This document shows, one piece after another, positions 13,014 through 64,000 of a DNA stretch of 64,000 nt. Position 1 is the stretch's first letter; each line of letters starts with the position of its first letter. The stretch is from Saururus chinensis. Taxonomy: Eukaryota > Streptophyta > Magnoliopsida > Piperales > Saururaceae. Under the pieces are notes generated by a model. That model made no database searches. It was not told where the DNA came from and saw only the letters and a program-made list of their open reading frames with translations. The stretch is from assembly GCA_035235625.1 (NCBI GenBank), contig CP141150.1:15364830-15428829 (forward strand). The letters run 5' to 3'. A program made the position numbers and the translations under genes.

Positions 13014-16000
13014 CTAGGAAATTAGAACCTCAGTAACAATGCGACCCGAACGATGGACCCGCCTCTTCTCGAGCACAGATGCAGGAGCTGGGTCGGATGG
13101 CGGAACAGGACACATGAAACACAGGGTGAACCAAGGAGTTAGGCGGCAATGTGAGACGGTAAGCAACCGGACCAACGCGCGCCTCCACATGATAGGGTCC
13201 ATGAAACTGGGGAGCGAGTTTGGAGTGCTCGGGCTGAAACAAAGAAGTCTAGCGCTATGGTAATACGGAAACATAAACCAAATCACCCACTTGGAACTCC
13301 CGATCAGTACGGTGGCCATCATAGAGCTATTTCATCCAGTTTTGAGCTACAACCAAATTCATCTTCAGTTGACGCAAGACCTCATCGCGAGTTTCGAGCA
13401 TATAGTCCACCTCAGCCACCGAAGAGCGATGAGGAACATAAGACAAGATCGTAGGAGGGGGCGACCATACAGCACCTCAAAAGGAGTGAAGCCCGCACGC
13501 GTGTGGTATGCGGTGTTGTAGGACCATTCCGCCCATGGAAGAAGCTGAAGCCAGAGGCGAGGCGTCATTGTAAAACACCAGAGGTACTGCTCCAGACAAC
13601 GATTAACCACTTCCGTCTGCCCATCTGTCTGTGGGTGATAAGCCATGCTCATATGAAGTGAAGTACCTTGTAAAGCAAAGAACTCCCGCCAAAACTGAGA
13701 AATGAAGATACGATCACGATCAGAAACAATAGTGCGGGGCATACCATGCAGCTTCGCCACCTCCCGGACATAGAGGGCAGCCACGGTCTTAGTAGTGAAA
13801 GGATGTCCCAATGCACAGAAATGGGCATACTTCGACAGACGGTCAACCACCACCATGATCACTGACTTGTCGTGCACCAGCGGCAAGGCCTCGACAAAGT
13901 CCATAGAGATATCCTCCCAGACCTTATCAGGAATTGGCAGAGGTTGGAGCAACCCGGCGGGAGAAGTCGTGGCTGCCTTGGCATGTTGACAAATATCACA
14001 AGCGGTCACATACTCATGCACTGCCCGATGAATTCCCAACCATAAGAAACTCTGGCTGACCCTCTTATAGGTGCGGAAAGTCCCCTCGTGACCGGCCACT
14101 AGAGAGTCGTGGAAATGAGAGATAATGTGGCGGTGAAGATCAGCGACAGGGGGAACCCACAACCGGTCCTTCCAAAACAAGAGGTCATCCCGCCAAGCAT
14201 AAAATGGACGGGCTGCAGGATCAATCTGGAGGGTAGCGATCAGAGCTTGTGTCGAAGCATCATCAATGTAGGCCTGCTTCAACTCCTCAATAAACGGACA
14301 GGATAACGTGGAGAAAGTCAAGCAAGACCCCAAGGAAGGTATGCGAGAGAGAGCATCCGCCACTGTGTTCTCCAACCCCTTCTTATAAACAACTGCATAA
14401 TCATAGCCCAGAAGTTTATTGACCCACCGCTGCTGAGAAGGAGTGGACACGTGTTGTTCCAAGAAATACTTCAATGGCTGGTGGTCTATACGAATCAAGA
14501 ACCAACGACCCAACAAGTACGACCGCCACTTAGTAACCGCATGGATGATGGCAAGCATTTCTTTCTCATACACGGACATGGACAAGGAGCGGCCCGCCAG
14601 AGCTTTGCTGAAATATGCAATGGGACGCTCGTCCTGTAAGAGAACCGCCCCCAGCCCTATAGCCAATGCGTCCGTCTCGACCACGAAAGGGTAGCTGAAG
14701 TCAGGCAGAATCAAGACCGGGGCAGAAGCCATGGCCTACTTCAGCCCCTCGAAGGCCTCATGGGCAGCTGCCGTCCAAGCAAATGCCCCCCGTTTAAGCA
14801 GCGCTGTCAGAGGGCGAGCCAACTCCCCATATCTACTAATGAACCGCAGATAGTACCCGGTGAGGCCGAGAAAACCATGGAGTGCCTGAACACTTTGGGG
14901 GGTAGGCCAAGATAGTATGGCAGCCACCTTGGCTGGGTCGGTGGTGACACCATTCCCTGATATAATATGGCCTAAATAATCCACCTGCTGACTGCCAAAA
15001 GAGCACTTCAAACATTTAAGAAACAAAGAGTTGTCTCGTAGAATAGAGAAGACAGAACTGAGGTGTGTCAAGTGCTCCGTCCAGGACCGGCTGTACACCA
15101 AAATATCATCAAAGAATACCAATATATAACGGCGCAGGAAGGGTCGGAAGAGGTCATTCATAAGGCACTGAAATGTGGAGGGGGCATTAGTCAATCCAAA
15201 TGGCATAACCAGGAACTCGAAATGGCCGTCGTGAGTCTGGAAGGCAGTCTTATGCACATCGCCGGCCCTCATTCGGATCTAATGATAACCCGAACGAAGG
15301 TCGAGCTTACTAAAGACTGTGGCACCTGTCAACTCATCTAACAACTCCTCGATCACCGGAATGGGATATTTGTCTTTCACAGTGACGGCATTCAGGGCGC
15401 GGTAATCAACACAGAAATGCCAAGTACCGTCCTTCTTCCGTACAAGCAACACCGGTGACGAGTAGGAACTCGTACTAGGCCTGATAATCCCCGCCTAAAG
15501 CATATCTGCCACCAATCGCTCGATCTCAGATTTTTGAATATGCGGGTACCTATAAGGACGCACATTGGTCGGGGCTGCTCCAGGTGTGATAGTAATCTAA
15601 TGGTCATGAGAGCGGGCAGGAGGGAGACCTTGCGGCTCAGCAAATAAGTCCTGGTGGTTGGTCAATAACTCCTGGAGATCGGCCGGCATGTTGTCCTGAG
15701 ACACCTCCAGGACTGCACGCTGCTGCAACAGGAGCCCTTGGGGGGCGAACCGGAACAAAGTGCTTGAAGGAAGGGTAGAGAGGAGAGTGCCCGGCCGAGA
15801 GCCCTCCAACTGTACGCTCTGCCCCTGGAGCTCAAAATCCATCCACATCTCACAAAAGTTCCAAACGACATCGCCGAGCTCCTGTAGCCACTATACGCCC
15901 AACACAACATCCTCCCCTTTTGTAGGTAATAGGAAGAGATCGGTGACAAATGAGTGGCCCTGAACCGACAAAGTGACCTGCGCACACACCCCATTACTCT

Positions 16001-17501
16001 TGAGGTGCTTGTCATCTCCAATTAGCACGTCAAAGGGTTTTGAATCCGATACTAAACAACCAAGCCGGTGAGCGACCCTGTCATTAATAAAATTGTGAGT
16101 AGAACCACTGTCGATCAAGATAGCTACCTGTTGGCGCTTGAGGTACCCTTGTACTCGCATTGTGCGAGGAGTATATGCCCCAGAAAAAGCATGCACTGAG
16201 ATCTCAGGTAAGACCTCCTCCATCACTGATGGGGTAGAGCCATCGGAACCCTCGTCCACATCGTCAATCTCCTCCACTAGAAGAATGCCCATAACAGAAC
16301 AGCGGTGCCCAGGAACAAATTTCTCATCACATCTAAAGCATAACCCCTTCGAACGGCGTTCTTTCATTTGAGCCAGTGTGAGGCGTCTTACAATCGGACC
16401 TGCGGGAGCAGCTGGCTGGTTGGGGCGACCGGTTACAGAACTGCTAGGGAACGTGGTCAAAGGATTGGTGCTGAGAGCAGACCGGGTCAATGGTCCAAGC
16501 CGCCCTCCCCTGCGCTGTCGGGCCAATTTTTCCTCTTCAATGCGAGCGTGGCGCACCACGTCCCGCATGTTGGCACACGGAAAATACCACATCTCATCTG
16601 AAATTTCTGGCTTGAGGTCGTGCTTGAAGGTGCCCACCAAGGCAGCCACCGGCCACTCTGGCAGCCAGTTGGCCACCTTCATGAATTCAGTATAGTATGC
16701 ACGAACGGCGGTAGTCTAGCGCAGGGATGACAACATCTCATTAAAATCCTGGAACTCATTAGGTCCAAACTGAATGCAGAGTTCGTCAGAAAAGGCCGTC
16801 CATGTAGGGTAGCACACCTCCTTCTCAAAGCTCTGGAACCAAACAGATGTGTCGCCATCAAGGTGAAAGGCTATGATGCGCAAGCGCTCAGCCTCTAAAT
16901 TTGTTCCTTGGTAGGCAAAAAACTTTTCAACCTTATACAACCATTCCACCAGATCATCATCCCCGTTGTAGCGAGGAAATTGAAGGCGAACAAGGCGAGG
17001 TTCAGCGCCCCCTCGTTGTCCCCCACCATGCCTAGGATACTCATCCCACTCCTCCTCAGCATCTTGAAACTGATTGGGAGGGGGTGGCATCATAGGAGCA
17101 TTTTCATGAACACCTGGGGTGCCTCGCATGTCCCAAGTCTGGCGTCTTCCTCCCAGCACTGGCTGGTCAGCGCCATAGTGCGCAGGGTATGGCAAAACTC
17201 CCACATTGACGCCGTCCGGGACTGAGGGTTCAGGAAGGATTGGCTCTGGAGGCTGCGAGGGCCTACCCTTCTCCTGAGTAGCAGCGACTGGTCCAGGAAG
17301 AATTGGGGTGACGCGCGCTGCCTGAAGTTGTACCTTCACGCTGGCCATGTCTGCAGTCAGAGCTTGCACCGCCACGATGAGTTCTGACAGCTTGGCGTCG
17401 CTTGTCGTGGAATTGGCCTTCGAGCTGTCCGTCAGCGTTGGCTCAGGTGCCTCCTTCTCTGAGGGCGCCTCTTGCACAGCAACTTGTTTGCCACGAGCCA
17501 T
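13014..17501 (-). pseudogene. Element A gag-pol (gag, protease, RT, RNase H, integrase)
   Basis: A single frame runs from the Met at 17501 (MARGKQ) to about 13460. Gag ends with a CFRC-x7-H-x-C knuckle (about 16340). Protease LIDSGSTH (~16110), RT FFDDILVYS with both catalytic Asp (~15100), RNase H (ETDALAIG, ~14680) and an integrase HHCC finger and DDE-type core (RDRIF) follow. Stops interrupt it at 16716, 15891, 15597, 15495, 15279, 14736 and, after a one-base deletion in a C run near 13460, at 13327, 13255 and 13249. All are TAG where family members mostly carry Gln. Another shift occurs near 13105; a chromodomain-like DATWMSEDDFLARYP tail follows. Apart from these changes the motifs are well preserved. 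It cannot make a full polyprotein. Confidence 0.92.
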
Positions 17502-17517
17502 GGCCGGGGATCGCAAG

Positions 17518-17531
17518 AGCTCCGATACCAA
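17518..17531 (-). promoter_or_regulatory. Element A primer-binding site
   Basis: In coding sense TTGGTATCGGAGCT directly follows the 5' LTR. It matches the initiator-Met tRNA primer site TGGTATCAGAGC with one mismatch. Confidence 0.85.
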
Positions 17532-17871
17532 TGATGTGCCCGATGCAGGCACGATTGGTACCTAGGAGAATTGCGCAGGGAAAGGGGAGAAGTAAGGAAG
17601 AAAGGAGAGAAATTGGAATTCTGTAATTGCGTAAAAAACCCAACCAAAAGGAAAGGCCGCCCCATATAGGAGACGACCACCTAGGGAACCGGGCCACTTG
17701 AACCAGACCGGTCCGATTCTTACAATATAATCTAATTAGTGGGTCGGCTAGCCCAGGCCACTAACTGAATCAACGCAGTACGACAAGAAAGTATTACAAT
17801 AATCAAGAAATAGTTCAAGGCAATAAAATAATAAAAGAGAGTATGATCCTCGTGCACAATCGTGCACAACA
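17532..17871 (-). repeat. Element A 5' LTR (right in the window)
   Basis: 340 bp, starting TGATGTGCCCGATG and ending GTGCACAACA. It carries a 10 bp tandem duplication (CGTGCACAAT/CGTGCACAAC) absent from the other LTR. Confidence 0.93.
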
Positions 17872-25541: not shown

Positions 25542-28500
25542 TGTAATGACCCGGATTTTTCCTCTATTTCTACTTGTTTTTGTGCAAAAGAAAAATCAAG
25601 TTGTCCCTTATAATTAATTTGTATTTTGTTCCGTATATGTATGTGTATGTGTGTTACATTTGGAGCTTAAGAGTAAGTGGAGAGGTTTGCGTGTAAATTA
25701 AACCTTTGGCGTGGAGAGAGGGTTTCGACAAGCAAAAAGGGGTTTTGCACCTAAAATATGCATTTGGCACGTAAGTCCAGGCTTTGGTGTGTGAAGTAAA
25801 GCTTCAATGCGCAAAGGGAGGCTTTGATGTGAAAAGGGTAGGCCCGAAGTTTACTAACATTTGGGCGTGTTAGAGGAGGCTTGGCGCATGTACGGGAGCG
25901 GCAACGTGTGAAAAGGGAGGCTTATGTGTGATTAATTGAAAACTACATAAATAAATAGTGGATCAGGATGAAAAGCCATGACCCATCTGTTCATTCCAGA
26001 AGTTCTAGAAAAAAATTCATGTCCATGAAGAAAACGGAGGCTTTTCAAGACCCTCCGCGCGCCTCCTCCGTGGTCGGAATCTGCCATTTCTTGCTGGATC
26101 TCGCTTCACCCGGCCGCCACGAGTACGGTGGTACCGACTAGAGCTTCTGCCATCTCCTCCTTGCTCCTCCTCGTGTTACTGGAATTTGGCTCGGTTTTCA
26201 CCCTTTTGGCCGTTAGGAGCGTCAGAGCTTCGTTTGGTGACCTTCGTGCACCGTTTCTGGCTGGCAACCACTTCTCCACCCCTCCTCTAGTCATAGGCTT
26301 CCTCCCCACGCCCTCATTTCTCCTCTCCGACCTTCCTCCCATCCACCGTCCCTTGTTTTTGCACCCAAAAACTCAAAACCAGGAAGCAAAATCCTTGCTG
26401 TCTGGCGGTAGTGTGGCCTTGCCGGCGGCCAGGGCTGGCCACCGTCACCTTGTTTCTCCTCCTCCTCACCTATCTACCTTAACCCACGCCCCTCTAGCTT
26501 TTATACGTGGGTTTCGGCCTCCGGAACCACGATTGTCGACCTCTACCCGGGACGGTTTTGGCTTCTGACGATTTGCCACGATGCCCGTTGACCGATGGTG
26601 GAGCTAGACACCGCACGGAATTTGGGTTTGCATATCAGCCCTTTTGGGCGCAGTGTCCACCCCAACCGCCTCTTGTACGCGTCGTTGGGAGGCACGGAGA
26701 TCAACGGGCATTGAATCGGGACTGGACCATTCATCACGTAAACCCCAGGCAAGCCTACGGCGCTTCACCCAAGGGCAACTCGTTTTATAGAAAGTGACGC
26801 TTGGGTTTTCCGAATTTGTCACTGATGCCACCACAGTTGTGCTCCCCGACAACATTCGTACGCCCGGAAAGCGAGGTAGGGGGCTTTGAATTTGTAATTC
26901 CATCGTAGCGTCCTTGGTATGTTAGAATGCATGCTAGGGCCATTTGATTACATGCTTCATAACACGTAATGCTATGGATATAGCATGTAATGGTATGATA
27001 TTAGCTTATGCAAATGCTAATTAAATGACATGTTATTAGCTCGACAAATGATGGATTGTACACGTTTGCAGTGTAAGTATTTGCATGCTAGTAAGATAAT
27101 TTATCTACACGCTTATCCAATGGTTTATGCATATGTTGGATGTGCTATAATTGTAAGTAGTGTTTGGTTGGATGTGTGTGGATTGACATGCGGAATGGTG
27201 GATGTTTATATCGATAACATCGATATGTGTACGCTTGATGGGCTGAAATTAGTTTGGATTGGATCAGGCTTTGATGCAATGAGGGGAAAGCTTTAGGGTT
27301 CTCGGGGGCAAACAGACATAGTTTTGAGTTTACTGGGAGACTTTATGATAGTATGAGTTCAGAGGAAAATTACACGAGCATAAAGTATTTAATTCAAACT
27401 GGAATGTTAAGTAAAACTAAATTGTTAACCTTGTGAGTTTGAGACTTTAGTAGTTCGACAGATTAAGTTCCGTGGTTGAGCTAGCTAGTGATTAATCGGC
27501 TAAGCATTTCTCATGCCTAGCCATGTGTGTATCCTGCGGGAGTTTGTTTGTGTGCTATATTTAAGCCTAAACGTTTCATGCTCTATTGAGAGCACTGTAT
27601 GATTCTTCCCAAGAGTGGCACTGTATGAATTCTGCCCAAGAGTGGCACTGGCACTATAAGACCCCTAAAGTGTGGGCGATTGTATGACCCTAATGTGTGG
27701 CTATTTATGTTTGCGCGCTCAGGTAAGTAGTATCACGAAACTACTCTTACCTGTTTGATCCTGTGCCCCAAGAGCACAGGTGTACTGTAATGCCTGAGAT
27801 TTTTCATACATTTTCCTTAAAATTCACAGAAAATTTTTGTAATATAACGGCTGTAAATCGGAAAAAATAATGAATACGGAACCTATAAAAATAGTTTTAT
27901 AAAATAAAACATCACACATCGGTTTTTCCCGTACAAATTTTTACTCATTCGATTAAACATCGTACGGCCAAAGCAAATATCCTCAGGCGCTACTCGAAAA
28001 TAACAGTACAAATAAATTGCTATGATCATAGACTTTAATTACAAATCTCTCCGAGGCGTCCCTGAGTGTAAGTCCCATAACAGTTCATAGTCTAATCCAA
28101 ACTAAAGTCCAGAATATATATACAACTTAATTCTCATCTCACCCAATACTTTATATCGTGACACAAATAATACTCAAAGTGAGTCAAACATATACCTGAG
28201 TCAATGGAAATCAATCCACCGCTGAAATGAGCATTCATCTTTAGGAGCTCTTCGTCACAAACCTGCAAAAGCATCCCAAACAACGGGGCTAAAAAATAAG
28301 GTAATGAGTATTTTCATACTCAGTAGGAAAATACCCAGTAGGGGAGTTCTAAATAGTGAACTCAATAAATCCATACATAGATGCGTTCATGCAACTCAAA
28401 CATGAAGCAAGCAGGCAACATAATCATGGTCATACGCATACAATCATACCAAATGCACCATCGTGCCAAAATCATACCATCAAATTAAACTTACACAAAC

Positions 28501-28559
28501 ACCCTTATCCAGGGTCTTACAAACTTACTTATACCATCGTACGCATATCATACAACTTA

Positions 28560-28910
28560 CACATACTTGTACGACCTTACTCGTATAATCATACACTTAC
28601 TCTTATAACTTACACAAACTCGTATGACCTTACTCGTACAGTCTTACACTTACAGTCTTACTCAGAAACTTACACTTACAGTCTTGCTTGGATTCATACG
28701 TTTACAATCTTACTCATACTCATACGCTTACAGTCGTGCTCATACTCATACTCTTACAGTTGTGCTAATACTCATACTCTTACAGTCATGCTCATACTCA
28801 TACTCTTACAGTCATGTTCATACTCATACTTTTACAATTGTGTTCATACTCATACTCTACAATCGTGTTCATACTCATACTCTTATAGTCGTGTTCATAC
28901 TCATACTCAT
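28560..28910. repeat. CATACTCATACTCTTACAGTCGTGCT minisatellite, left half
   Basis: About ten imperfect units of roughly 26-30 bp built from CATACTC and CTTACAGTCGTG. The array is split by the solo LTR at 28911-31427 and continues at 31428-31720. On the minus strand it corresponds to the GAGTAAGACTGTAAG repeats of element B's LTR (35385-35480, 44110-44310). It creates low-complexity open frames (Tyr-Ser, His-Thr) that are not genes. Confidence 0.85.
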
Positions 28911-31427
28911 TGTAACGCCCGTCCATTTTTCATCTTTCCTCGCCCGACATACAGTCACAGTTTTCACGTCATAGACTATGAAGTATCCTTTGTCAAACTT
29001 ACAATCAAACACTCCCCCTTGCCCATCGATCACATACTACTAGCCCACAACAAAGATCACATGCTCTGGTCACAAACTTACAATTCATAGCAACTTACTA
29101 CTTACTCTTAGTCTTCAGTAGCATACGCACAATTTTTATACATACAATATGCTTATATACTCAGCATAATCATGCAAAATATTAAATTATAAACTCCTAG
29201 CATGCTACTACACAATCAAAGCATGCTATAATAAAATTACGAGTTCAAGGTCCTTTACCTCGTAATCCACAAAAGTTTGATGGTGAGCATATGACAGTGG
29301 CAACGTCGGTGGCGGAATAGGTGGCCAAAAGCATCACACTGAGAGAGTTATTGTCCCAAGGATTTTCAGACTCTAAATAAATCTCGACAAGGTTGGGATA
29401 ATTTCACTCGAACCAAAACAATTGGGTGCACTAGGGAAGCCAGACACAAGGTCGTGCCACTAGAAATTGAAGGCGCGACCAAAAGTTGAGGGTGTATAGA
29501 CTGAAAGTCGGTCGCAAGACGTTGAAATCGGCCATGACAGCACCCAACGGCATCAATTTCGCGTTTACAAGGGCCCACATAAGGGCGAAGGGCAACGACC
29601 AAGGGCGGAGGAGAGGTGGAGGTGGCGATGGAGCCAGCCGATTAAGGATCGTCTATGGCCGTTGACAAGCCGGGGCAGAACCCACGATAACTGAGTGGCC
29701 CTCACTAGCCATTGACAATGACGGTAACTCAAAATCAAATAGGGGTAGGAGACTATCAGGTGATCGGAGCGGGTTGACCAAGGTGAACAAGCGGCCAAAC
29801 GAGGAAGGTGGCGATGGTCTAGCCTTCACTTGTCCCGACAAGTTGGACATATGCCTGCCGGAGTCCATCCGATGCATAGCAGCAATGGATGGACATCACC
29901 TGACTGAAATAGGGAAGGGGTCCATACTATTGGAATCGAAGCCATAGGTGGAACCAAGATGGGGGTAGGTGGGGCTAGGCCAAAGCAGCCTTTCCGTCAT
30001 CGCCAGTTTGGGACGGAGCCAGGCGAATTCTGGCCAGCCCATGCCCGGCCACAACGATGCCAGAGAGAAGAAACAAAGGAAGAGGGCACATTTCTTTGGA
30101 TCGAACAGGCCAAGCAGGGCAATGATGGACAAGCTCCCACCATCACTAGGCCGAGGCAAAATCGTCAGCGGCTGGCCGGCCTTTGCTAGCCCACGACAGC
30201 GACAAAAATCATAAAACAGAGTGGAAGAGGCGGAACCAAAACAAGCTAGGGTGGCCGGAGAAGGTGGAGCCGGGCCGGATGGGGCTGTCCCTGGCCGTCA
30301 CCCGGTGGGGGCGGAGTCCACTGTCGGCCAGCACTGGCAGCTGCAGAGCCCAACACAGAGGGCAGATGATTCTGGGTGGATTAACAGAATAGGAAAAGGG
30401 CGGAAGAGAGGGCCAGGGAGGGAAGGTGGCGGCCTTGGCCAACTCCTCCATGGCCAAAGAGGCCCGGCAGAGCTGTCATCGGCTAAAGCGGGTAGCTTCC
30501 GGTGCCAAAAGTCCTAACCGAAGCACATCGAACAAAAACCGAACATAGGAGCGTTCGGACCGAGCATAGGAGAGACAGAGGGGGAGGAGGAGGAATTAGT
30601 CCTGGTGGGGTGGCTCACTGCCTTTGCCGAACCTAGGAGGAGCTGGTCGGGCTCCGGTCAGCCACAGCTCTCTGTCGGTGGCCACTGGTTAATCAAAACA
30701 GTCAGGGCGACAAAAACAGGGATGAAGGAAAGAATAGGAGAGGGGCAGAAGAGGAGACCAATTGGGGCCGGGAGGGACATCCTCCCGCCGTCGCCGGCCC
30801 AAGGCGGAGCACTGGGAGGCCGGCCAGCCCTCGTCAGCGCAAGGCGGCGACGGAAACAACACAACACAAATACAGGGGGATGGGGCTAACCGGAGCGAAT
30901 CTCGGTGGGGGAACCGGCGGGACTGGTCAGGGACAGCGGCCTTGCCGTTGCCGGCCCAAAGCCAGTTGGACGGAGGCTAGACGGAGCCTATCGCCAATTG
31001 CCGGTGACATTCTCGTGAGAAAACGGGAGGGTGAGAGAATGGGAGGGCGAACTGGGGCGGAACTGAGGAAGTAGAACCCGGACTGGGGCGGCGCCGAAAA
31101 GGCGGCCTGGCTGTCGCCTGGCTGAGGCCGGCCGGCGTCCAGCCGGTGGTGCCTCACCGGTCCATCCAGAACGAGAGAAGGGCCTCTGGGCGATTCCAGA
31201 ATGGAGTCGCCCGAGCCCAACTTTTATTATTTTTATGTTTTTTCATTTTTATCCCTTATCATCTGATCTCTCATTTACTTTGAATTTTCGCGCGGTAAGC
31301 GCGCGTCTAGGCTAGCGGCCTATGACTGAACCCATATCTAATTCTACGGGTACGAAAGTGACACATTTTCTTAATGAAAATTATCAAAAAATAACAGTGA
31401 AATTGTAGAAAAATTAAGGATGTTACA
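28911..31427 (-). mobile_element. Solo LTR nested in the inverted LTR
   Basis: 2,517 bp starting TGTAACGCCCG and ending GGATGTTACA, flanked by CTCAT on both sides (28906-28910 and 31428-31432). Minus-strand reading gives TGTAACATCC to GGGCGTTACA, the usual TG/CA ends. Its GC-rich part (29250-31320) is related to 33530-35110 of the surrounding LTR, including AAGCATGCTAT, CTCGTAATCC, GGCGGCCAAAAGCAT-like and AAGGGCCCACATAAGGGCG words. No coding domain is seen; open frames in the GC-rich part have no recognisable product. Confidence 0.85.
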
Positions 31428-31725
31428 CTCATACTTTTACAGTTGTACTCATACTCTTACCGTCGTGCTCATACTCATACTCTTATAGTCGTACTCATAC
31501 TCTTACTCTTACAGTCGTGTTCATACTCATACTGTTACAGTCGTACTCATACTCATACTCTTACAGTCGTGCTAATACTCATACTCTTACAGTCCTATTC
31601 ATACTCATACTCTTACAGTCGTACTCATACTAATACTCTTACGTCGTGCTCATACTCATATTCTTATAGTCGTACTCAAACTCATACTCTTACTCTTACT
31701 CTTACTCTTACAATCATACACATAC
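31428..31725. repeat. CATACTC/CTTACAGTCGTG minisatellite, right half
   Basis: Continuation of the array at 28560-28910 after the nested solo LTR. Confidence 0.85.
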
Positions 31726-31954
31726 TATCGCCCACTAAAGCTCATTACAACTAATAAGCTCAAGTGTCGAAACAGAAAAGAATGTCACTGGGGCATTGCC
31801 TTAACCTCCGGGGAATGACTAGACATCATTGACTTTTCCAAAGGCAAGGCACACCAATGCTCATGGGGCACAAGATTAAATAGGTAAGAGCAGGTCCATG
31901 ATACTACTTACCTAAGCGCGCAAACATAAATACCCACACATAAGGGGTCATATA

Positions 31955-32180
31955 ATTGCCCACCATAATGGGTTTGATAGTGCCATAGAATTGCCCACCA
32001 TTACGGGTCTTATAGTGCTATAGAATTGCCCACCATAATAGGTCTTATAGTGTCAGTGTCACTCTTGGGCAGAAATCATACATTGACATTATTGGGCGGA
32101 ATCATACAATATCACTTGGGCAGAAATCATACAGTGCCACTCTTGGGCAGAAATCATACAACGCTCTCAATAGAGCATCA
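31955..32180. repeat. Short tandem repeats ATTGCCCACCATAA and TTGGGCAGAAATCATACA
   Basis: Several direct copies of two short units. They are the reverse-complement counterpart of the TGCCCAAGAGTG repeats near 27606 and 43860 in element B's LTRs. Confidence 0.75.
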
Positions 32181-33099
32181 AACGCTTGGGCTTCATACAA
32201 CACACAGACTAAATCGAAAACATACATTACTCTCAACGAAGCATTATACGCCCGGTGCTCTATACAGCACATAAACAACATCGAAAACATACTTCACTCT
32301 TAACAGAGCATTAGACATCTAAGTGCTCCATACAACACATAGACAACATCCTGTAGGATAAACATCATGGCAAGACATAAAAAATGCTCAGTCGACTCAT
32401 TATCGGCTAGCTTAAACACGGAACTTAATCCGTCAAACCCTCATGTCTCAAACTCACAACGCTATCATTAGCTTTTCTTATAAAAAATCAAGTTTGAATT
32501 AAGTAAGTTATGCGGTACAATTATGCTACACAAACTCTCAAACATACCGTGCTCCACTGATGAAACTGAAGTTGAGCCCGATCCGAAACCCTAGTTCGTC
32601 AGGGCAACAGACTTCACTCACCCGTCCATATCATAAAAAAACTCATTGTACACCAAAATTTTACAGTCTTACATATTCTGCCATCCACCTTATGACCAAA
32701 TCATCTTACACTGACATCATCAAATGAAGCTCCTCAGAGCCAAACCCAATTATACTCTCTTACTTATACCTCATTTATTAAGCTTACTTTTCACTTCATA
32801 ATCTGTACGTTATACTTATACAATTATGCACACTCTTACTGTCTGACAACCACCAACATACGCTCTGGTATAAACCACTCCACTCTCATCCTCGCCCGTC
32901 ATACTCATATCCTCTGTCATCCGTCATATGCTTACACATCCACAACAAATCCAAACGAAACCTCTATCACCTCTTACTGTCCATCACCCATACCTCTGCC
33001 CACATACACTTACACATATCCATAGCATCGGCAAATAGCCATCATACATATATATGTCAATCATACATATGTATAACATACACAAACTTTCATACATAC

Positions 33100-33410
33100 T
33101 TAGCTTACCATCATACTCGCTAGTCATCGCTAGCACATACATACACGTAGCTTACAAATATACACACTAGCCATCACTAGTACATATAGATCCACATACG
33201 TAGCTTACAAACATACACGCTAGCCATCACTAACACAACATACTTCCACATATGTAGCATACCAACATACACGTTAGCAATCACTAGCACATACTCAATT
33301 CACATATGAAGCTTAACAACAAACACGCTAGCCATCACTAGCACATAATCAACATGTGAAGCTTACCAACAAACACGCTAGCCATCACTAGCACACAATC
33401 CACGTACATC
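33100..33410. repeat. 50-56 bp minisatellite (CACGCTAGCCATCACTAGCAC)
   Basis: About six tandem units, each containing CGCTAGCCATCACTAGCAC followed by a CACATATGTAGCTTAC-like spacer, inside the inverted LTR. Unit length drifts from about 50 to 56 bp. Confidence 0.85.
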
Positions 33411-35982
33411 ATACATACTTACATGCATATCATATGCATTTCAACATGGCATAATGCATCCTCTTACATCATGCAAATAGATCATGATCTAACATCCATA
33501 ACATTCAATCATATAGTTCTAGCATGTTGCTATTCATTCAAAGCATGCTATCATGAATTTACGACTTCAAAGCTCTCCTACCTCGTAATCCTGACATTTG
33601 ATAGCGAGCACACGACGGTGGCAGAGTTGGCGGCCAAAAGCATTGCCAAGTCGAGAGAGCTACTGTCCTAAGGGTTTAGGAAGCGTCGAAAATAATCACG
33701 GTCAAACGGGGTGTCAGAAGTCAATGCGGCAAAATCCGCAATCCACGGCGGAAAACTAGGGGCGGCCGAGAGAAAGGTCGTGCCAACATAAGTGGTAGTG
33801 CGACCAAATGTCGATGGTGTACTCATTGAAGGTTGGCCGGCGGCTGAGAAGTACTCGGCCGGCCGTAAAACGTCGAAATCGGTCGTGGACAGCACCCAAC
33901 GGCGGCGATTTTGTGTCAACAAGGGCCCACATAAGGGCGGAGGGCACGAGGCAACGCTCAAGGATAGAGGAGAGGTGGAGGAGGGCTATGCATGAATTCC
34001 ACTCGGTGGCAAAGCCAACCAATGGTCAGGCGGCGCAAAAGCGGCGCCTAAGCCTTGAAATGCACGCATGGCCACATGCACACTCAGCCAAAAAGGCCCA
34101 CTTTAGGAGAGATGGGTCGGACGGTGGCAGCCCACAGCCCACAAAAGGGCAATGGAGCTATGGCCAGGACATGGTGGCCGATCGAAGCGGTGACATCACC
34201 GATAGCCACCCACAACCAGAACCATGGTGCGGGCGGCTATGCATCTTGCACGGTATAGGGCAAGGGCAAGCGGCCCATTCCAGGCGGAGTGTATAATTGG
34301 CCAAGTGGGGCTAGCCCTCACTGTCGCTGAGCCGGGGTTAAGCCCACGATGGCCAAATGGCCCACGGTTCGCCAATGGCAACGACCCGAGATGCACCCAA
34401 AGCGTCTAATCGGGCGGAGCAAGGCAATAGGGTTGAGGTGGGGTCGGAAACGGTAACCCCCTACCAATACTAGGACGAGGTAGGCTGGACGGAGTCCGTC
34501 CGGTGACCGGACAACGACCGGAAACATACCGGTGTCCAAAAAATCCCACAGACAGTGAGATAACAATAGTAACAAAACCCGACCAAAGTAATGGTAGCTA
34601 ACTGCGGAGCGAATAAAGCATGGTAGCGGCTCTAGCCAATGCCTATGGGTTCCTACCAACCAAGCAAACATAAGTCTAGTTGAGGGCGGCCGCAAACGAC
34701 GTCAAAATCGCACACCCATGGCTCAAAAAGGGATTTGAAGGAGAAAAAACTTGAAAAAAAGTTTGGTACCTCCTTGATGAGCGAAGAGGCCATGGGGGCG
34801 GTCATAGCCGGTACCTATGGACTCGTGGCGATGAGGCAAAGAGGATCCTAACAAGAACCGATGAAATCCGATGGCAGAGGAGGGAGAATGGAGAGACTAG
34901 AATCAAGCTCTGGTTTCTCACAATGTTATTGGACGTGAAAAAGTTTCAGGGTGTCAAAATGTTACTGGAAGCGTGCTATGGACGTCAAAATATCATTTCT
35001 TTTTTATTTTTACATCTATATCCCCAATACGCGTTCACTTACCATTCACGCGTTATACCTCCAAAATTCGCGCTGTAAGTGTGCAACAAGGCCCGCGGCC
35101 CGCGACTAAGCCCCACACTCAACTCTATGGGTATAAATATGGGGTAAATACATAAATATAAATACACCAAAGCGTCACATTTTCCCACCAAAAATAACTA
35201 GAAAAATAGCAGGAAAATCACATAAAATCATAGAAAAATCAGGGACATGATATGTACCTTGCCTTCGAAAAAGTCCATGGCATCTAATACTCTCCGGAGG
35301 TTAAGGTGACGCCCCAGTGGCATTCCTTTCCGTCAACGTTGGAGCTAATTAGCTTGATAATGAGCTCTAGCTGTTGATCATAAGCATATGTGTTGAGTAA
35401 GATTGTAAGGTTAAGATCGTAAGTGTATGTGTTGAGTAAGACTGTAAGAGCAGGATTGTAAGTGTAAAAGTTTGAGTAAGATAGTAAGTGTATGTATATG
35501 CGTAGGATTGTGTGGTAAGATGGGACGAACATGAGTTCGTGATATGTGTATGGTTATGAACATCATATTCTGAGAGACTTTGATTGTTCATGTTTTACTA
35601 CTTCATGTTATGTTTCATGAAGGCAGCTACATCTGGACTTACAAATTCATTGTTTAGAAATACCCTACTGGGTATTTTCTACTGAGTATGAAAATACTCA
35701 TTTTCCCTCTACTGAATTTCAAATCCACCAGTGACTTCTGCGGGTCCCAACACGAGAGCTTTGTAGGCGGGACTTGGTTTTGGAGGAGAGGACAGACTTA
35801 CGGACTTCAGGTCATCTTTTGATTGTTCAGTTTCTTTTGTTTAGTTATGCCACAAACTGATGTAATTTTTGAGTATACATGTATTATGCAAGTTGAGAGC
35901 TTATGCATGTATTATTTTGGACTTGTATATGGACTGTTTATATTGGGACTGTTATCGAACTTGTACTTGGCTATGACGGGAG

Positions 35983-37133
35983 TAGGGTTGGGAAAATTCA
36001 ACCCGACTTGTTTACCCGACCCGCTTAACCCTGTACCTAACCCGACCCGACTACAGGTAGGGTCAGGGTAAAGGTTTAGGCTCTTGACCCATTTTGAATT
36101 TAAGGTCGGGTCATACCCAACCCGCACAACCCGACTAACCTGACTACAAATAATAAAGAACCCTATTTTTATAGTGTTGGTCTATTGGACTTATTTATAC
36201 TATTATTATTGTGTTTGTTTATTGCATACTATGTTGAACTGTAAGTGCTTAAACATAAATTTGGGCATGAATAAGATGTTTAGAGCATAGGTCTGATCAC
36301 ATATATTTTGCTTTTGTAGTAGACATCTATTTTGGGATAACAAAGGATGGTATCAAAGTGTGGTTAATTTTTATATAGTTTAATTTCTTTTCTGTTATTC
36401 TTTTCGGTGTGGTGAATGGAATGAAAATATGTCATATTTTGTTGTATTCATTACATACACTAGATTTAGCTCTCTGTTAAAGGCCTGACAATCATAACAG
36501 GGAGCAGGTTATGAACATGTAACCAGATAGGCGGATAATAAAGTTCGATGAAGGACACTTTTTGGAGGAGGAAAATTGTAATCAGGTATCACTGGTTGCA
36601 AAGGAGGGTAGGGTTATTAGCAGCCATAGAGTAGTTAATGAAAATTTGAAATTAAGACATGCTGAAACGCATGATCCTTTATGGCCATCAAAGAAATAAT
36701 GTTCAATTTGTTTTGCGTTGGTATGTGAGTTATCGAAAGCCAAGTGGGCTGATCATGAGTAAACAAATGTTGAAGGTCTGTTTTATTATCATTCTCTTAG
36801 AATGGAGGAAATGCAATATTATACCTTTAAGGTCTTTGTTGATGGCTACTACAAGAAAAGTATTAGCCACAAATTAGCCAAATAATCAAATACTACAAAT
36901 TAATGTTGTAATGTATTTAATTTTATTTGTGTTTGCCCTTTATAAAGAGAAGGTATATAATACAAGTTTAACAAAAAAATTGAGGGAAAAAAGTAGGGCT
37001 ACCCGCATACCCGACCCAACCCGACCTGACCCAACCCAAGTAGGGTTAGGGTTTAGATTTTCGACCCGATTTTAGTGAGGGTCAAGGCCAACCCAACCCG
37101 ATTTGACCCGACCCAACCTGATTCCCAGCCCTA
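35983..37133. mobile_element. Non-autonomous hAT-like element in the element B 5' LTR
   Basis: 1,151 bp with inverted ends TAGGGTTGGGAA and TAGGGCTGGGAA (reverse complement of the right end). The 3' LTR keeps the empty site CCTGGGAG at about 44796-44803; here it appears intact on the right (37134-37141) and as a worn GACGGGAG on the left (35975-35982), so an 8 bp target duplication is supported. Subterminal ACCCGACCC repeats occur at both ends. No transposase domain was recognised. Confidence 0.8.
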
Positions 37134-37401
37134 CCTGGGAGATGTGTATTTAGGCTCATGGCCATGGCACTCGTGATTTTACGTGTGTTTGTTTGATCTC
37201 ATGCCTGGGGTGATTAGTCGATGTGTTTTGATGATTTAGAAGAAAAATTCAAGTTGTGTAGTTTTAAATTGACGATGTGAGAAATATAAAATGTTTTCAC
37301 AGGTTTTGATTTTCGTGAATTTTTAAAAATTACAGCCATTATATTGCAAAAAAATTTCATGAAAATTCTAGAAAATGGTTTGAAAAACCCAGGACGTGAC
37401 A

Positions 37402-40500: not shown

Positions 40501-41701
40501 ATCCCGGCGGAACGAAGATGTACCGAGATTTACGACGTGGGTTCTGGTGGAATGGCATGAAGAAAGATATTGGGGAGTGTGTTTCTAGATGCTTGACATG
40601 CCAGCATGTCAAGGCAGAGCATCAGAGACCATAAGGACCCCTCCAACCATTGGACATCTTAGAGTGGAAGTGGGAGCACATCACGATGGATTTTGTTGTG
40701 GGTTTACCTCGCACTCAGAAGGGGCATGAGGCGATTTGGGTGATCGTGGACCGGTTGACAAAGTCAGATCATTTCCTGCCTCTTCGAAGAGAACACCCCC
40801 CTAATGAATTGGCGCAACTTTATGTGGATGAGATCGTGACATTACATGGCGTACCCAATTCCATTGTGTCCGATAGAGACAACCGATTCACTTCTCATTT
40901 TTGGCATGGGTTGCAAGAAGCTTTTGGTACGGTCTTAAAGTTTAGCACTGTTTTTCACCCTCAGACCAATGGTTAGTCAGAAAGGACCATTTAGACGCTA
41001 GAGGATATGTTGCGAGCTTGTGCCTTGGATTGGAAGAGTTCTTGGGATAGGCAATAACAGCTATCACTCTACCATTGAAATGGAACCATATGAGGCAATG
41101 TATGGAAGACCATGTCGGTCACCGACATGTTGGGATGATGTAGGAGAGCGAAAATTACTCAAGTAAGAGTTAATCCAGCAGTGTGCAGACAAAGTGAAGT
41201 TAGCAAGGCAAAGACTTCAGACTGCGCAAAGCCATCAGAAAAGCTATGCTGATCGGAGACGGAAAGATCTTGAGTTTGAGGTTGGCGACCATGTATTTTT
41301 GCGTGTCTCCCGCGCAAAGGGAATTATGTGGTTAGGGGTAAGAGGAAAATTGAGTCCTCGTATGTGGGTCCTTTCGAAATCCTGGAACGAATTGGACCAG
41401 TGGCTTATAGAGTTGCCCTGCCACCTCAGCTCTTGGAGTTCACAAAGTCTTCCATGTATCAATGCTCCGAAAGTATGTGCCTGACCCCTCCCATGTACTT
41501 GACTATACTCCTATGGAGCTCCGTCCTGACAAGACTTTTGAGGAGCGTCCGAGTCGGATTCTGGACAGAAAAGAACAGGTCTTTAGGACAAAGACCGTTC
41601 CTTTAGTGAAGGCTTTATGGCAGTACCATACTTTTGAGGAGGTAACTTGGGAAGTCGAGGCAGAGATGAGACAGAAATACCCTGAGTTGTTTGCTATGTA
41701 A
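37551..41701 (+). pseudogene. Element B gag-pol (Del/Tekay-like), heavily damaged
   Basis: Gag starts at ATG 37551 and includes the retrotransposon gag core (about 37850-38200). The zinc knuckle and the aspartic protease are not found: sequence passes from the gag tail (~38640) to the VDCHKKRVIFECP segment that normally lies just before RT. RT follows from 38906; its active-site box reads FVDNILVYS, with Asn (codon 39416) for the second catalytic Asp. A one-base insertion lies near 39473. RNase H (to ~40180), an integrase HHCC finger (40470-40610), a DDE-type core and a chromodomain-like end (TFEEVTWEVEAEMRQKYPEL, 41635-41695) follow. Stops: TAG at 37692, 38328, 38457, 38523, 38544, 38550, 38730, 40974, 40992; TGA at 38202, 38562, 40182; TAA at 40281, 40632. 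Confidence 0.92.
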
Positions 41702-41749
41702 GTTGTACTATGTGGTTAATGAAGCAATTTTAGGTAAGAAATTTCCTAA

Positions 41750-41760
41750 GTGGGGAAGAA
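41750..41760 (+). promoter_or_regulatory. Element B polypurine tract
   Basis: GTGGGGAAGAA immediately precedes the 3' LTR start TGTAATGACC. Confidence 0.8.
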
Positions 41761-44700
41761 TGTAATGACCCGGATTTTTCTGTTGTTTCTACTTGTTTTT
41801 GTGGAAAAGAAAAATCAAGTTGTCCCTTGTAATTAATTTGTATTTTGTTCCGTATATGTATGTGTATGTGTGTTACGTTTGGAGCTTAAGAGTAAGTGGA
41901 GAGGTTTGCGTGTAAATTAAACCTTTGGCATAGAGAGAGGGTTGTGACGCGCAAAAAGGGGTTTTGCACCTAAAATATGCATTTGGCACATAAGTCGAGG
42001 CTTTGGTGTGTAAAATAAAGCTTCGATGCGCGAAGGGAGACTTCAGTGTGAAAGGGGTGGGCCCGAAGTTTACTAGCATCTGGGCGTGTTAGAGGAGGCT
42101 TGGCATGTGTACGGGAGCAGAAACGTGTGAAAAGGGAGGCTGATGTGTGATTAATTGAAAACTACATAAATGAATAGTGGATCAGGCTGAAAAGCCACAA
42201 CCCATTTGTTCATTCCCGAAGTTCCAGAAAAAAATTCTAGTCTGTGAAGAAAACCGAGGGCTTTTCTGGAGCCTACGTCGCGCCTCCTCCGTGGTTGGAA
42301 TCAGCTATTTCTTGCCGGATTTCGATTCACCTAGCCACCACGAGTCCGGTGGTACCGACTAGAGCTTCCGCTGCCTCCTCCTTGCTCCATCTCGCGCTTT
42401 CGGAATTTGGCTCGGTTTTCACCCTTTTGGTCATTAGGAGCGTAGGAGCTTCGTTTGGTGACCGTTGTGCACCATTTTTTGTCGGCCACCACCTCTCCTC
42501 CAGTCAGAGGCTTCCTCCCCACGCCCTCCTTTCTCCTCTCCGACCTTCCTCCCATCCACCATCCTTTGTTTTTGCACCCAAAAAATCACAACTGGGAAGC
42601 AAAAACCTTGTTGTCCGGCGGTCGTGTGGCCTTGCCGGCGGCCTTGAATGGCTACCGTAGCCTTGTTTCTCCTCCTCCTCACCTATCTACCTTAACCCAC
42701 ACCCCTCTAGCTTGGGTTTTGGCCTCCAGAACCACGATTGTTGACCTCTACCCGGGACGGTTTTGGTTTCCAATAATTCACCACGACGCCCAGTGACCGA
42801 CGGTGGAGCTAGACACAACACGGAATTTGGGTTTGCATATCAGCCCTTTTGGGTGCAGTGTCCACCCCCGACCACCTCTTGTACTTGTTGACGGAAGGCA
42901 CAGAGATTGATGGGCATTGAATCGGGATCGGACCATTCATCGCGTAAACCCCCGGCAAGCCTACGACACTTTCGCACCCAGGGGCAGCTTGTTTTATTGA
43001 AAGCGACGCTTGGGTTCACCGAATTTGCACCTGATGCAGCCACAGTTGTGCGCCCTGACAACATTCGTACACCCGGAAAGCAAGTTAGGGGACTTTGAAT
43101 TTGTAATTCCATCATAGCGTGCTTGGTATGTTAGAATGCATGCTAGGGCCAATTTAATTACATGCTTCATAACACGTAATGTTATGGATATTGCGTGTAA
43201 TGGTATGATATTAGCTTATGCAAATGCTAATTAAATGACATGTTATCGGCTCGAAAAATGATGGATTGTACACGTTTGAAGTGTAAGTATTTGCATGCTA
43301 GTAAGATAATTTATTTGCATGCCTATGCAATGGTTTATGCATATGTTGGATGTGCTATAATTGTAAGTAGTGTTTGGTTGGATGTGTGTGGATTGACATG
43401 CGGAATGGTGGATGTTTTTATCGATAGCATCGATATGTGTATGCTTGATGGGCTGAAATTAGTTTGGATTGGATCAGGCTTTGATGCAATGAGGGGAAAG
43501 CTTTAGGGTTCTCGGGGCAAACAGATATAGTTTTGAGTTTACTGAGAGACTTTATGATAGTATGAGTTCAGAGGAAAATTACACGAGGATAAAGTATTTA
43601 ATTCAAACTGGAATGTTAAGTAAAACTAAAATGTTAACCTTGTGAGTTTGAGACTTTAGTAGTTCGACAGATTAAGTTCCGTGGTTGAGCTAGCCGGTGA
43701 TTAATCGGCTAAGCATTTCTCATGTCTAGCCATGCTGTGTATCCTGCGGGAGTTTGTCTGTGTGCTATATTTAAGCCAAGACGTTTCATGCTCTATTGAG
43801 AACACTATATGATTATGCACAAGAGTAACACTGTATGAATTCTGCCAATGAGTAGCACTGTGTGAATTCTGCCCAAGAGTGGCACTGGCACTATAAGACC
43901 CCTAAAGTGTGGGTGATTGTATGACCCTAATGTGTAGCCGTTTATGTTTGAGCGCTTAAGTAAGTAGTATCATGGACCGACTCTTACCTGTTTGATCTTG
44001 TGCCCCATGAGCATAGGTGTACCTTACATTCGGAAAAGTCCATGGTGTCTAGTACTCTCTAGAGGTTAAGGTGACACCCCAGTGACATTCCTTTCCGTCG
44101 ACGTTGGAGCTGATTAGCTTGATAATGAGCTTTAGTTGTTGATTGTAAGCGTATGTGTTGAGTAAGACTGTAAGATTAAGATCGTAAGTGTATGTGTTGA
44201 GTAAGACTGTAAGATTAAGATCGTAACTGTATGTGTTGAGTAAGACTATAAGAGCAGGACTGTAAGTGTAAGAGTTTGAGTAAGACAGTATGAGTAAGAC
44301 AGTAAGTGTATGTATATGCGTAGGATTGTGTGGTAAGATAGGACGAACATGAGTTCGTGATATGTGTATGGTTATGAACATCATATTTTGAGAGACTTTG
44401 ATTGTTCATGTTTTACTGCTTCATGTTATGTTTCATGAAGGCAGCTACATCTGGACTTACAAATTCATTGTTTAGAAATACCCTACTGGGTATTTTCTAC
44501 TGAGTATGAAAATACTCATTTTCCCTCTACTGAATTTCAAATCCACCAGTGACTTCTGCGGGTCCCAACACGAGAGCTTCGTAGGCGGGACTTAGTTTTG
44601 GAGGAGAGGACAGACTTACGTACTTCAGGTCATCTTTTGACTGTTCAGTTTCTTTTGTTTAGTTATGCCACAATCTGATGTAATTTTTGAGTATACATGT

Positions 44701-45061
44701 ATTATGCAAGTTGAGAGCTTATGCATGTATTATTTTGGACTTGTATATGGACTGTTTATATTGGGACTATTATCGGACTTGTACTCGGCTATGCCTGGGA
44801 GATGTGTATTTAGGACCATGGCTATGGCACTCGTGATTTTACGTGTGTTTGTTTGAACTCATGCCCAGGGTGATTAGTCGATGTGTTTTGATGATTTGGA
44901 AGAAAAATTCGAGTTGTGTAGTTTTAAATTGATGATGTGAGAAATATAAAATATTTTCATAGGTTTTGATTTTTATCAATTTTCACAAATTACAGCCATT
45001 ATATTGCAAAAAGTTTTCATAAAAATTCTGGAAAATGGTTTGAAAAATCCAAGGCGTGACA
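41761..45061 (+). repeat. Element B 3' LTR
   Basis: 3,301 bp, uninterrupted, starting TGTAATGACCCGG and ending GGCGTGACA. It gives the reference for reading the broken 5' LTR. It contains a GC-rich block (42250-43080), an 88-codon open frame (43240-43506, also in the 5' LTR at 27030-27296) and a GAGTAAGACTGTAAG tandem array (44110-44310). It ends 277 bp from the stop codon of gene 2. Confidence 0.93.
44110..44310. repeat. Tandem GAGTAAGACTGTAAG array
   Basis: Four to five imperfect units of roughly 40 bp (GTGTATGTGTTGAGTAAGAC plus GTAAGATTAAGATC). A shorter version is at 35385-35480 in the 5' LTR. Confidence 0.8.
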
Positions 45062-45066
45062 AAAGC

Positions 45067-48764: not shown

Positions 48765-48776
48765 CTTGGAAAGCAT

Positions 48777-62458: not shown

Positions 62459-64000
62459 ATGGACGCTAGGCAAAGCTTCGCACCCGTGACAGTTGGTTCC
62501 ATTGCCGGGATACCAGAAGGAGGTGAAAGCTCTGTACGGTCTTTGAGAAGGAGTTGGATGAAGGTTGTTGAGTCGCTGAGATACCCGGAAGAGGCCAAAT
62601 CCTTAACGGGTTGTTGCTGAACAGATTGGAGATCCTTGCTGCGTGCTTACCTTACCTTGACGAGTTGCTGGAAAACAAAGAGTGTTGATGGTAGGCTCGA
62701 TGTTGGCTACAATTGCTGAGGTCGAGGCGAAGGTGGATGCGATGGCCACTGCGAATGGGACGTTGGCTGAAGTCCAAACCTCTTTCTGCAACATCAATGA
62801 GTGTTTGGCCCTCTTCAACCAACTAGTGTCCTTGCTTGAAGTCGCACCACACGTTGATGAGTCTCAGGAAGATGGCAGTACGGCTGAAGGGGCAGCCCGT
62901 CTCACCACATTAGTGGCCGATGTGTCTGCGATGATGGATTACCTCAGGCAGTGAGTGCAAAAGGTAGAGGAGGCAGCGACAGCGAAGGTTAGCGAGTTAG
63001 TGGATGAAGTGGCGGTGCTGAAGCGGGCAATCCTCAATACTCCATCCCGAGATGGGGGCGAGTCTTCATCTTAGCAGGTTGTGAAGAAGGTAAATGTGCA
63101 TGAACCGAAGGTGTACGCGGGGACGGGAGGCACCAAGGAGATCGAGAACTTCCTTTGGTATATGGAAAGCTACTTCACGCCGGTCCATACTCAAGAGGGG
63201 GAGAAGGTTACCATGGCAGCGATGTACCTTGAAGGGGATGCAAAGCTGTGGTGGCGGACGCGGTTGGAGGATGATGCAGCTACGGGTTAGCCAAAGATAG
63301 GGACGTGGGATACGTTCAAGAGGGAGCTGTAGGTGCAGTTCCTTCTCAAAAACATGTCTTGGATGGCTTGAGAGGCATTGAAGAACCTTAGACATACGGG
63401 GGCAGTCCAGGACTACGTTAAGGAGTTTCAGTCACTGATTTTGGGCGTGACAAACAATGACAAAGGATGACAAGCTGTTCTACTTCATGGTGGGCTTGCA
63501 AATATGGGCTTAGAAGGAGCTGAGACGAAGGGAAGTGGAGGACCTTCCCGCAGCGATTGCAGCGGATGATAGCCTGGCGGACTTCAAACAAACTCCCGCT
63601 GAGTCAGCGAAGAAGAATGGGGAAGCAAAGTCATCCAACAAGGAGGACATCAAGGGTGGCAAAGCCAAGGGCAGCGAGCAGTCTGGCCAGCCTAACAAGG
63701 GTGGTGGCTGTTTCATATGCGATGGGCCGCACTGTGCCAAAGTCTGTCCAAAACGGGAAAGGCTGAATGCACTTCTTGCGAAAGAGGAGGAGGAATCCGA
63801 TCATGAGGAGCTAGCACGAATGAGTCCCTTGCAGCAAATGAGTTGTGTTCAGTTGCTGGAGTCCCCGCTTGAGGGGGCAGCTTCGAGTCATTGAGGATTC
63901 GAAGGAAGGAGGGAGCAGACTCCCCAAGCCTTGGCTGATCGAAGCAGCTAAGGGGCAAACTGATGGAGAGGTTCGCAGGATTTGGGGGCAGCGGGTGTTG
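62459..64000 (+). pseudogene. Element C gag (Ty3/gypsy), partial and disrupted
   Basis: A possible start is ATG 62459, though frames shift before 62682. The main frame (62682 onward) reads a helical region, then EPKVYAGTGG, a WYMESYF and MYLEGDAKLWWRTR gag core (63100-63270), and, after a frameshift near 63460, a Lys/Ser-rich linker and the zinc knuckle CFICDGPHCAKVC (about 63706-63744), as in plant Ty3/gypsy Gag. Stops: TGA at 62952, TAG at 63072, 63288 and 63330, TGA at 63369, TAG at 63511, TGA at 63892. The protease and pol would lie beyond the window. Confidence 0.85.

What the first reader, a model, noticed from the sequence alone, without database searches (positions are those of the whole stretch)
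13249..63894. Three retrotransposons killed mainly by TAG codons at Gln positions
In element A all nine in-frame stops I could place are TAG, most at sites where Ty3/gypsy relatives carry Gln (for example in the SGYHQIR and QTTAVR-type contexts). Element B has nine TAG, three TGA and two TAA. Element C has four TAG and three TGA. The TGA codons sit where Arg (CGA) is expected. CAG to TAG is a C to T change in a CHG context and CGA to TGA one in a CG context, the two contexts kept methylated on silenced plant transposons. The pattern looks like a record of methylation-driven deamination, more specific than general decay.
Basis: partly seen in the sequence, partly recalled or inferred. Interest (0 to 1): 0.75.

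Follow-up and report, generated by a model that had tools for sequence, protein, structure and literature searches.

The report
Methylation scars in dead plant retrotransposons
Three broken jumping genes in a plant chromosome carry mutations concentrated at the two kinds of DNA site that plants keep methylated on silenced transposons, so many of their stop codons look like a record of silencing-driven chemical damage, a process already known in plants.

Summary
All nine TAG codons reported in element A are real; at each, the commonest sense codon in 11 other copies from the same genome is CAG. C-to-T changes in A, polarised with two genome copies, are 24/212 at CG, 17/245 at CHG, 12/916 at CHH (CHG v CHH p 9e-6). 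The bias recurs in the LTR pairs of A (5/25, 4/22, 0/91) and B (57/194, 29/139, 56/920) and in pooled copies of all three families, but not in a neighbouring gene pair once T sites are counted. It is strand-symmetric and blind to dipyrimidines. CAG/CTG exceed CCG in all three families, significantly in two, matching reported CCG under-methylation in plants. Corrections: by stop codons alone only A exceeds codon supply (P 0.002; B and C 0.47-0.88); B's own pol piece is not significant for CHG (p 0.12), and two of its five comparable stops are transversion-type; one C stop is in 28 of 29 copies. The process is known (wheat, PMC2996936); methylation was not measured.

The parts
12575..17871 (-). 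Element A, Ty3/gypsy-type LTR retrotransposon, about 5.3 kb, flanked by a 5-base target duplication (12570-12574 and 17872-17876)
   Evidence: LTR ends and target duplication read from the sequence printed; domain order gag, protease, RT, RNase H, integrase; tblastn frames
17532..17871 (-). 5' LTR of element A
12575..12904 (-). 3' LTR of element A; 13 differences from the 5' LTR over 332 aligned columns, 9 of them transitions, all 9 at CG or CHG
13458..17501 (-). Long gag-pol frame of A interrupted by six TAG (16718, 15893, 15599, 15497, 15281, 14738)
12921..13461 (-). Integrase tail of A after a frameshift, TAG at 13329, 13257, 13251 and 13016; normal terminator at 12923
25542..45061 (+). Element B with two insertions in its 5' LTR, 5-base target duplication at 25537-25541 and 45062-45066
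25542..27785 (+). 5' LTR of B, first piece (further pieces 35253-35982 and 37134-37401)
   Evidence: context counts
41761..45061 (+). 3' LTR of B
37704..41743 (+). gag-pol remains of B with at least five frame changes; nine TAG, four TGA, three TAA; no protein relative aligns to 38388-38663
62757..63890 (+). gag start of element C, cut by the window end; four TAG and three TGA, one of which is not a lesion
408..4839 (-). Receptor-kinase gene copy used as non-transposon control, paired with 45062-49437

Best explanation
Three ordinary Ty3/gypsy-type retrotransposons of a plant inserted and were silenced by cytosine methylation. While silent, their methylated cytosines at CG and CHG sites (above all CAG and CTG) deaminated to T on both strands much faster than other cytosines. 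In the reading frame this turns CAG (Gln) into TAG, CGA (Arg) into TGA and, through the other strand, TGG (Trp) into TAG. CAA (Gln, a CHH site) is largely spared, so TAA is rare. Shown here: the context bias, its strand symmetry at CG and CHG, the codon outcome, its absence in a gene pair once T sites are counted, and the CAG/CTG over CCG preference. Inferred: that methylation was the cause, which methyltransferase made it, and that silencing came before the stops.
For: LTR pairs: A CG 5/25, CHG 4/22, CHH 0/91; B 57/194, 29/139, 56/920 (57 further B differences dropped because their context differed between copies); mirror (5') context control flat for G at -1. Eleven further family-A LTR pairs: 70/188, 41/236, 56/994. 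Polarised with two other genome copies: A 24/212, 17/245, 12/916; pooled A family 294/2165, 210/2494, 219/9887; C family 188/1197, 160/1568, 199/6747; B family 115/565, 100/792, 136/4241. Codon outcome in 12 A copies: TAG 67/724 at CAG sites, TAA 2/366 at CAA, TGA 15/186 at CGA; stops 89 TAG, 24 TGA, 6 TAA. At A's nine TAG the commonest sense codon elsewhere is CAG, and the sister copy reads sense at the six examined. Gene pair: no context effect on all C/T sites (OR 1.19 and 1.12) against 3.63 and 2.96 in B's LTRs, interaction p 2e-5 and 0.0017. No dipyrimidine effect. CG and CHG rates not different between strands in any of the three families. CAG/CTG above CCG in all three families: A 180/1913 v 30/581, C 142/1272 v 18/296, B 83/599 v 17/193, as reported for methylation in four angiosperms (PMC5221884, abstract). 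Maize transposons average 82% CG, 67% CHG and 4% CHH methylation (PMC8547701, passages).
Against: No methylation data. In B's own pol piece CHG v CHH is not significant (6/97 v 14/482, p 0.12; other outgroup pairs 4/49 v 10/367 and 3/46 v 11/360). B and C stop tallies alone do not differ from codon supply. On simple C-site rates the gene pair also shows the bias (CG 45/127, CHG 32/146, CHH 160/1250; p 1e-9 and 0.005); it goes only when T sites are counted. Of 32 TAG sites private to one A copy, 11 have another commonest codon than CAG, CAA or TGG in the other copies. The CAA/CTA excess seen in A and C is absent in B. In C the CHH class differs between strands (p 0.014). B LTRs show a weak mirror-context signal for G at -2 (p 0.012). 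Triples share sequences, so pooled p-values are not independent.
Confidence: 0.9

Rival explanations
1. Codon supply: the families use CAG more than CAA, so random transitions give mostly TAG.
For: For B gag, B pol and C the TAG share is what codon supply predicts (P 0.69, 0.88, 0.47).
Against: A exceeds supply (P 0.002). In the A family TAG at CAG sites is 67/724 against TAA at CAA sites 2/366. Non-coding LTRs show the same contexts.
Confidence: 0.04
2. Ultraviolet damage: C-to-T at dipyrimidines.
For: It also gives C-to-T.
Against: Pooled A family, YC against RC: CHG 107/1275 v 103/1219, CHH 122/5575 v 97/4312; LTR pairs likewise.
Confidence: 0.01
3. A deaminase acting on one strand of the cDNA, or a repeat-induced point mutation process aimed at CA.
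For: CAG is also a CA site.
Against: CTG mutates as much as CAG (90/948 v 90/965), while CAA, CAC and CAT stay low (41/1159, 26/1054, 24/1151). CG and CHG rates do not differ between strands. At the six A stops checked the sister copy reads sense, which fits accumulation after insertion.
Confidence: 0.02
4. TAG is read as Gln (recoding), so the elements are not dead.
For: The TAG codons of A lie at Gln positions.
Against: Many stop sites are private to one copy (32 TAG sites private, 24 shared). A also has a 1-base and a 68-base deletion. The same C-to-T contexts appear in non-coding LTRs and on the other strand. The gene's own end is TAG in A and the 11 other copies.
Confidence: 0.005

Closest known systems
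Methylation-driven transitions in wheat transposons (PMC2996936, BMC Genomics 2010; passages read)
   Same: Transitions at CG, CHG and CHH sites about 2-fold higher in transposons than in introns and UTRs, LTR pairs used; the authors say methylation can irreversibly inactivate elements by raising mutation at methylated sites
   Different: That paper's main text holds neither 'stop codon' nor 'nonsense'; here the outcome is followed to codons and to CAG/CTG v CCG
Subcontext signatures of plant CHG and CHH methylation (Gouil and Baulcombe 2016, PMC5221884; abstract and passages read)
   Same: CCG less methylated than CAG/CTG, linked in Arabidopsis to SUVH H3K9 methyltransferases; CAA and CTA preferred among CHH in Arabidopsis and maize through chromomethylases
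   Different: That is measured methylation; here it is seen only as accumulated C-to-T, and the CAA/CTA part fails in family B
Ty3/gypsy (possibly chromovirus) LTR retrotransposons of plants
   Same: Domain order in A, paired LTRs and 5-base target duplications in A and B
   Different: Copies A and B are broken and C is cut by the window; nothing unusual in anatomy
Long-term deamination in Welwitschia (PMC8275611; passages read)
   Same: Transposon cytosines lost through deamination of methylcytosine
   Different: The passages read argue from GC content, not from codons or contexts

Membership tests
Methylation-driven decay of plant transposons | C-to-T per site higher at CG and CHG than at CHH | tested here: met
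   element B's pol piece alone not significant for CHG (p 0.12)
Methylation-driven decay of plant transposons | Both DNA strands affected alike | tested here: met
   for CG and CHG in three families; CHH in family C differs, p 0.014
Methylation-driven decay of plant transposons | Stronger than in neighbouring genes | tested here: met
   one receptor-kinase pair, on the test that counts C and T sites; not polarised, genes are under selection, and the simple C-site test does show a bias in the genes
Methylation-driven decay of plant transposons | Cytosines methylated in the germ line | not testable with these tools
   no bisulfite data
SUVH/CMT3-type CHG methylation pathway | CAG/CTG favoured over CCG | tested here: met
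   p 9e-4 in A, 0.008 in C; same direction but p 0.08 in B; mutation, not methylation, was measured
CMT2-type CHH methylation pathway | CAA/CTA favoured among CHH | tested here: inconclusive
   met in A (p 0.002) and C (p 2e-5), not in B (p 0.59)
Ty3/gypsy retrotransposon (element A) | gag, protease, RT, RNase H, integrase in that order | tested here: met
   the gag match (21.5 bits) is below Pfam's cut-off of 24.1
Ty3/gypsy retrotransposon (element A) | Paired LTRs with target duplication | tested here: met
Chromovirus (element A) | Chromodomain at the end of integrase | tested here: inconclusive
   the 29-residue piece after the last internal stop gives no Pfam hit; several relatives carry PF00385
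Ty3/gypsy retrotransposon (element C) | gag and pol domains | tested here: inconclusive
   two short pieces give no Pfam hit; 15 weak tblastn matches in one frame; window ends in gag

The most novel reading that the evidence does not exclude
The mutation spectrum of dead plant retrotransposons keeps a readable, family-specific fingerprint of which methylation pathway silenced them. CAG/CTG over CCG would mark the SUVH/CMT3 route, and CAA/CTA over other CHH a CMT2-type chromomethylase (families A and C but not B). A plant's past silencing pathways could then be typed from sequence alone. A corollary, resting on one case, is that TAG scars go on to TAA through the CTA left on the other strand.
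Probability: 0.4. Interest if true: 0.55.

Novelty: new member of a known kind. Interest (0 to 1): 0.35.

Why it matters
It is a worked example, from one locus and some of its genome-wide copies, in which stop codons of dead elements read out methylation context. It also warns that LTR dating is inflated: A's LTR distance falls from 0.040 to 0.011, and B's from 0.090 to 0.048, when sites that are CG or CHG in either copy are left out. Because transitions are removed selectively, those lower figures are bounds and not ages.

Tried and rejected
Protein relatives as a guide to the original residue: useful at conserved sites but misleading at one A stop (Tyr in relatives, CAG commonest in the family's DNA) and at one B stop (Arg, but not a CGA codon).

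Polarising B's LTR differences with the diverged LTR fragment at 31.4-32.5 kb: too few sites (C-to-T in CG 8 of 11, CHG 7 of 11, CHH 10 of 18).

Simple C-site rates in the gene pair also look context-dependent (CG 45/127, CHG 32/146, CHH 160/1250). The effect disappears when T sites are counted too, so the simple ratio is confounded by T-to-C changes and I did not rely on it alone for the LTRs.

Rejected: ultraviolet damage, CA-directed mutation, one-strand deaminase, recoding of TAG (see rivals).

Not done: B's gag stops at DNA level; a polarised gene control from the genome; a single-element CHG test with power for C (5/52 v 7/221).
Full report
What is there. The window (G000:C11:15364830-15428829 of a 516-Mb assembly in 11 contigs) looks like plant nuclear DNA with receptor-kinase-like genes and LTR retrotransposons. 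Element A runs 12575-17871 on the minus strand with LTRs at 17532-17871 and 12575-12904 and a 5-base target duplication. Element B runs 25542-45061 on the plus strand, with a 3.3-kb 3' LTR and a 5' LTR split by two insertions (27786-35252 and 35983-37133), also with a 5-base target duplication. Element C begins its gag near 62757 and is cut by the window end.

The stops. In A the frame is continuous by homology from 17501 to about 13458, then shifts twice. It holds ten internal TAG and no TAA or TGA. One further TAG, at 12923, is TAG in all 11 other copies and so is the normal end. Against all nonsense-capable codons the TAG share is unlikely in A (P 0.002), whereas in B gag, B pol and C it is what codon supply predicts (0.69, 0.88, 0.47). 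Seven of B's 16 stops lie in 38388-38663, where no protein relative aligns.

What stood there before. Protein relatives came from three searches (120 listed of 7909, 1827 and 7974 found). Gln is the commonest residue at six of A's nine TAG sites (178 of 180 at one, 12 of 13 at another, only 64 of 277 at the weakest), other residues are commoner at two, Tyr at one; at the tenth TAG, Trp in 26 of 26. DNA copies from the same genome are better. Of 41 LTR hits (two of them A's own) I took the 11 further elements whose two LTRs lay 4 to 9 kb apart; a pair 13 kb apart and unpaired hits were left out. The sister copy reads sense at the six of A's stops that I checked, so those probably arose after the two copies parted. 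For C, 29 of 39 further hits were used: for five of seven stops the commonest sense codon is CAG or CGA, for one CGG then TGG, and one TGA is in 28 of 29 copies and is no lesion. For B's pol piece, 8 of 39 further hits were used: of five stops two sit where CAG is commonest, one TAA where 7 of 8 read CAG, and two need a transversion. B's gag stops remain untested.

The mutation test. Within A's LTR pair, 9 of 13 differences are transitions and all 9 are at CG or CHG: 5/25 and 4/22, against 0/91 at CHH. In B's LTRs the figures are 57/194, 29/139 and 56/920, with 57 further differences dropped because their context differed between the two copies; without dropping they are 72, 45 and 82 differences. 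T-to-C changes could inflate such ratios, so I bounded them: even if every CHH difference in B were T-to-C, at most 21.6 CG and 12.1 CHG differences are expected against 57 and 29 seen. The gene pair shows no excess on the same reckoning (45 seen, up to 58.9 expected; 32 seen, up to 38.4), although its simple C-site rates do differ by context. Eleven further A-family LTR pairs give 70/188, 41/236 and 56/994.

Polarised counts. Counting only sites where two relatives agree over five bases, A has C-to-T 24/212 at CG, 17/245 at CHG and 12/916 at CHH (CHG v CHH OR 5.6, p 9e-6); two other outgroups give the same picture. Pooled families give A 0.136, 0.084, 0.022; C 0.157, 0.102, 0.029; B 0.204, 0.126, 0.032. 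B's own lineage alone gives 9/71, 6/97, 14/482, where CHG v CHH is not significant (p 0.12), and with other outgroup pairs 3/44, 4/49, 10/367 and 4/41, 3/46, 11/360. C's own gives 8/38, 5/52, 7/221. Codon outcome, counted over codon sites where at least two copies read the sense codon: 12 A copies 67/724 TAG at CAG, 2/366 TAA at CAA, 15/186 TGA at CGA; 30 C copies 51/652, 15/562, 29/326; 9 B copies 12/133, 1/115, 7/90. Missense and nonsense changes at columns at least 90% conserved in protein relatives agree: A 5/43, 3/47, 0/166; B 4/23, 3/25, 3/123; at 80% the direction holds with CHH 3/221 in A and 4/151 in B.

Mechanism. CG and CHG rates do not differ between strands. There is no dipyrimidine effect. 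CTG mutates as much as CAG, while CAC and CAT stay low and CAA is only a little higher. That speaks against ultraviolet damage, CA-directed mutation and a one-strand deaminase as main causes, and fits methylcytosine on double-stranded DNA. Among CHG sites CAG/CTG exceed CCG in all three families: A 180/1913 v 30/581, p 9e-4; C 142/1272 v 18/296, p 0.008; B 83/599 v 17/193, p 0.08. Counted once per alignment site the p-values are 2e-5, 0.004 and 0.18. Gouil and Baulcombe report CCG under-methylation in four angiosperms, linked in Arabidopsis to SUVH H3K9 methyltransferases, and CAA/CTA preference among CHH in Arabidopsis and maize through chromomethylases (PMC5221884; abstract and passages). 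Here the CAA/CTA preference appears in A and C but not in B. The link from methylation to mutation is inferred, since no bisulfite data were at hand; maize transposons average 82% CG, 67% CHG and 4% CHH methylation (PMC8547701; passages), which is the order seen here in mutation.

Known or new. The wheat study showed more transitions at CG, CHG and CHH sites in transposons than in introns and UTRs, used LTR pairs, and said methylation can inactivate elements irreversibly (PMC2996936; passages). The process is thus known. Ten full-text searches of the open library (listings seen, four papers opened for abstracts or passages) showed me no paper that reads CAG/CTG v CCG from accumulated mutations of dead elements; that is a limited search, not proof of absence. 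The stops are best seen as scars accumulated under silencing (inference). In B, frame changes and insertions seem to do more damage than the stops.

Noticed in passing
window 122-408 and 25254-25541 / 45062 onward: The receptor-kinase locus at the window start is a paralogue of the one split by element B and shows B's site without the insertion.
   Followed up: partly
window 27786-35252 and 35983-37133: Two insertions inside B's 5' LTR; the larger holds 26-base tandem repeats (28.6 and 31.4 kb) and a reversed, about 74% identical fragment of a B-like LTR at 31.4-32.5 kb.
   Followed up: partly
window 11469-11613 and 17872-18016: A 145-base inverted repeat (95% identical) whose one arm starts exactly at element A's target duplication.
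   Followed up: no
L036, L039, L041: These A-family copies have CHH C-to-T of 0.039-0.046 against about 0.01 in A, L031, L033, L034 and L035, while only L039 is also high in CHG; longer branches or a different silencing route could explain it.
   Followed up: no
window 40281: A TAA in B at a codon that 7 of 8 other copies read as CAG: a possible second step through the CTA left on the other strand after TAG.
   Followed up: no
window 1405-4125 and 46038-48788: Two large receptor-kinase-like open frames (906 and 916 codons stop to stop) on the minus strand; the loci are 86% identical in DNA.
   Followed up: partly
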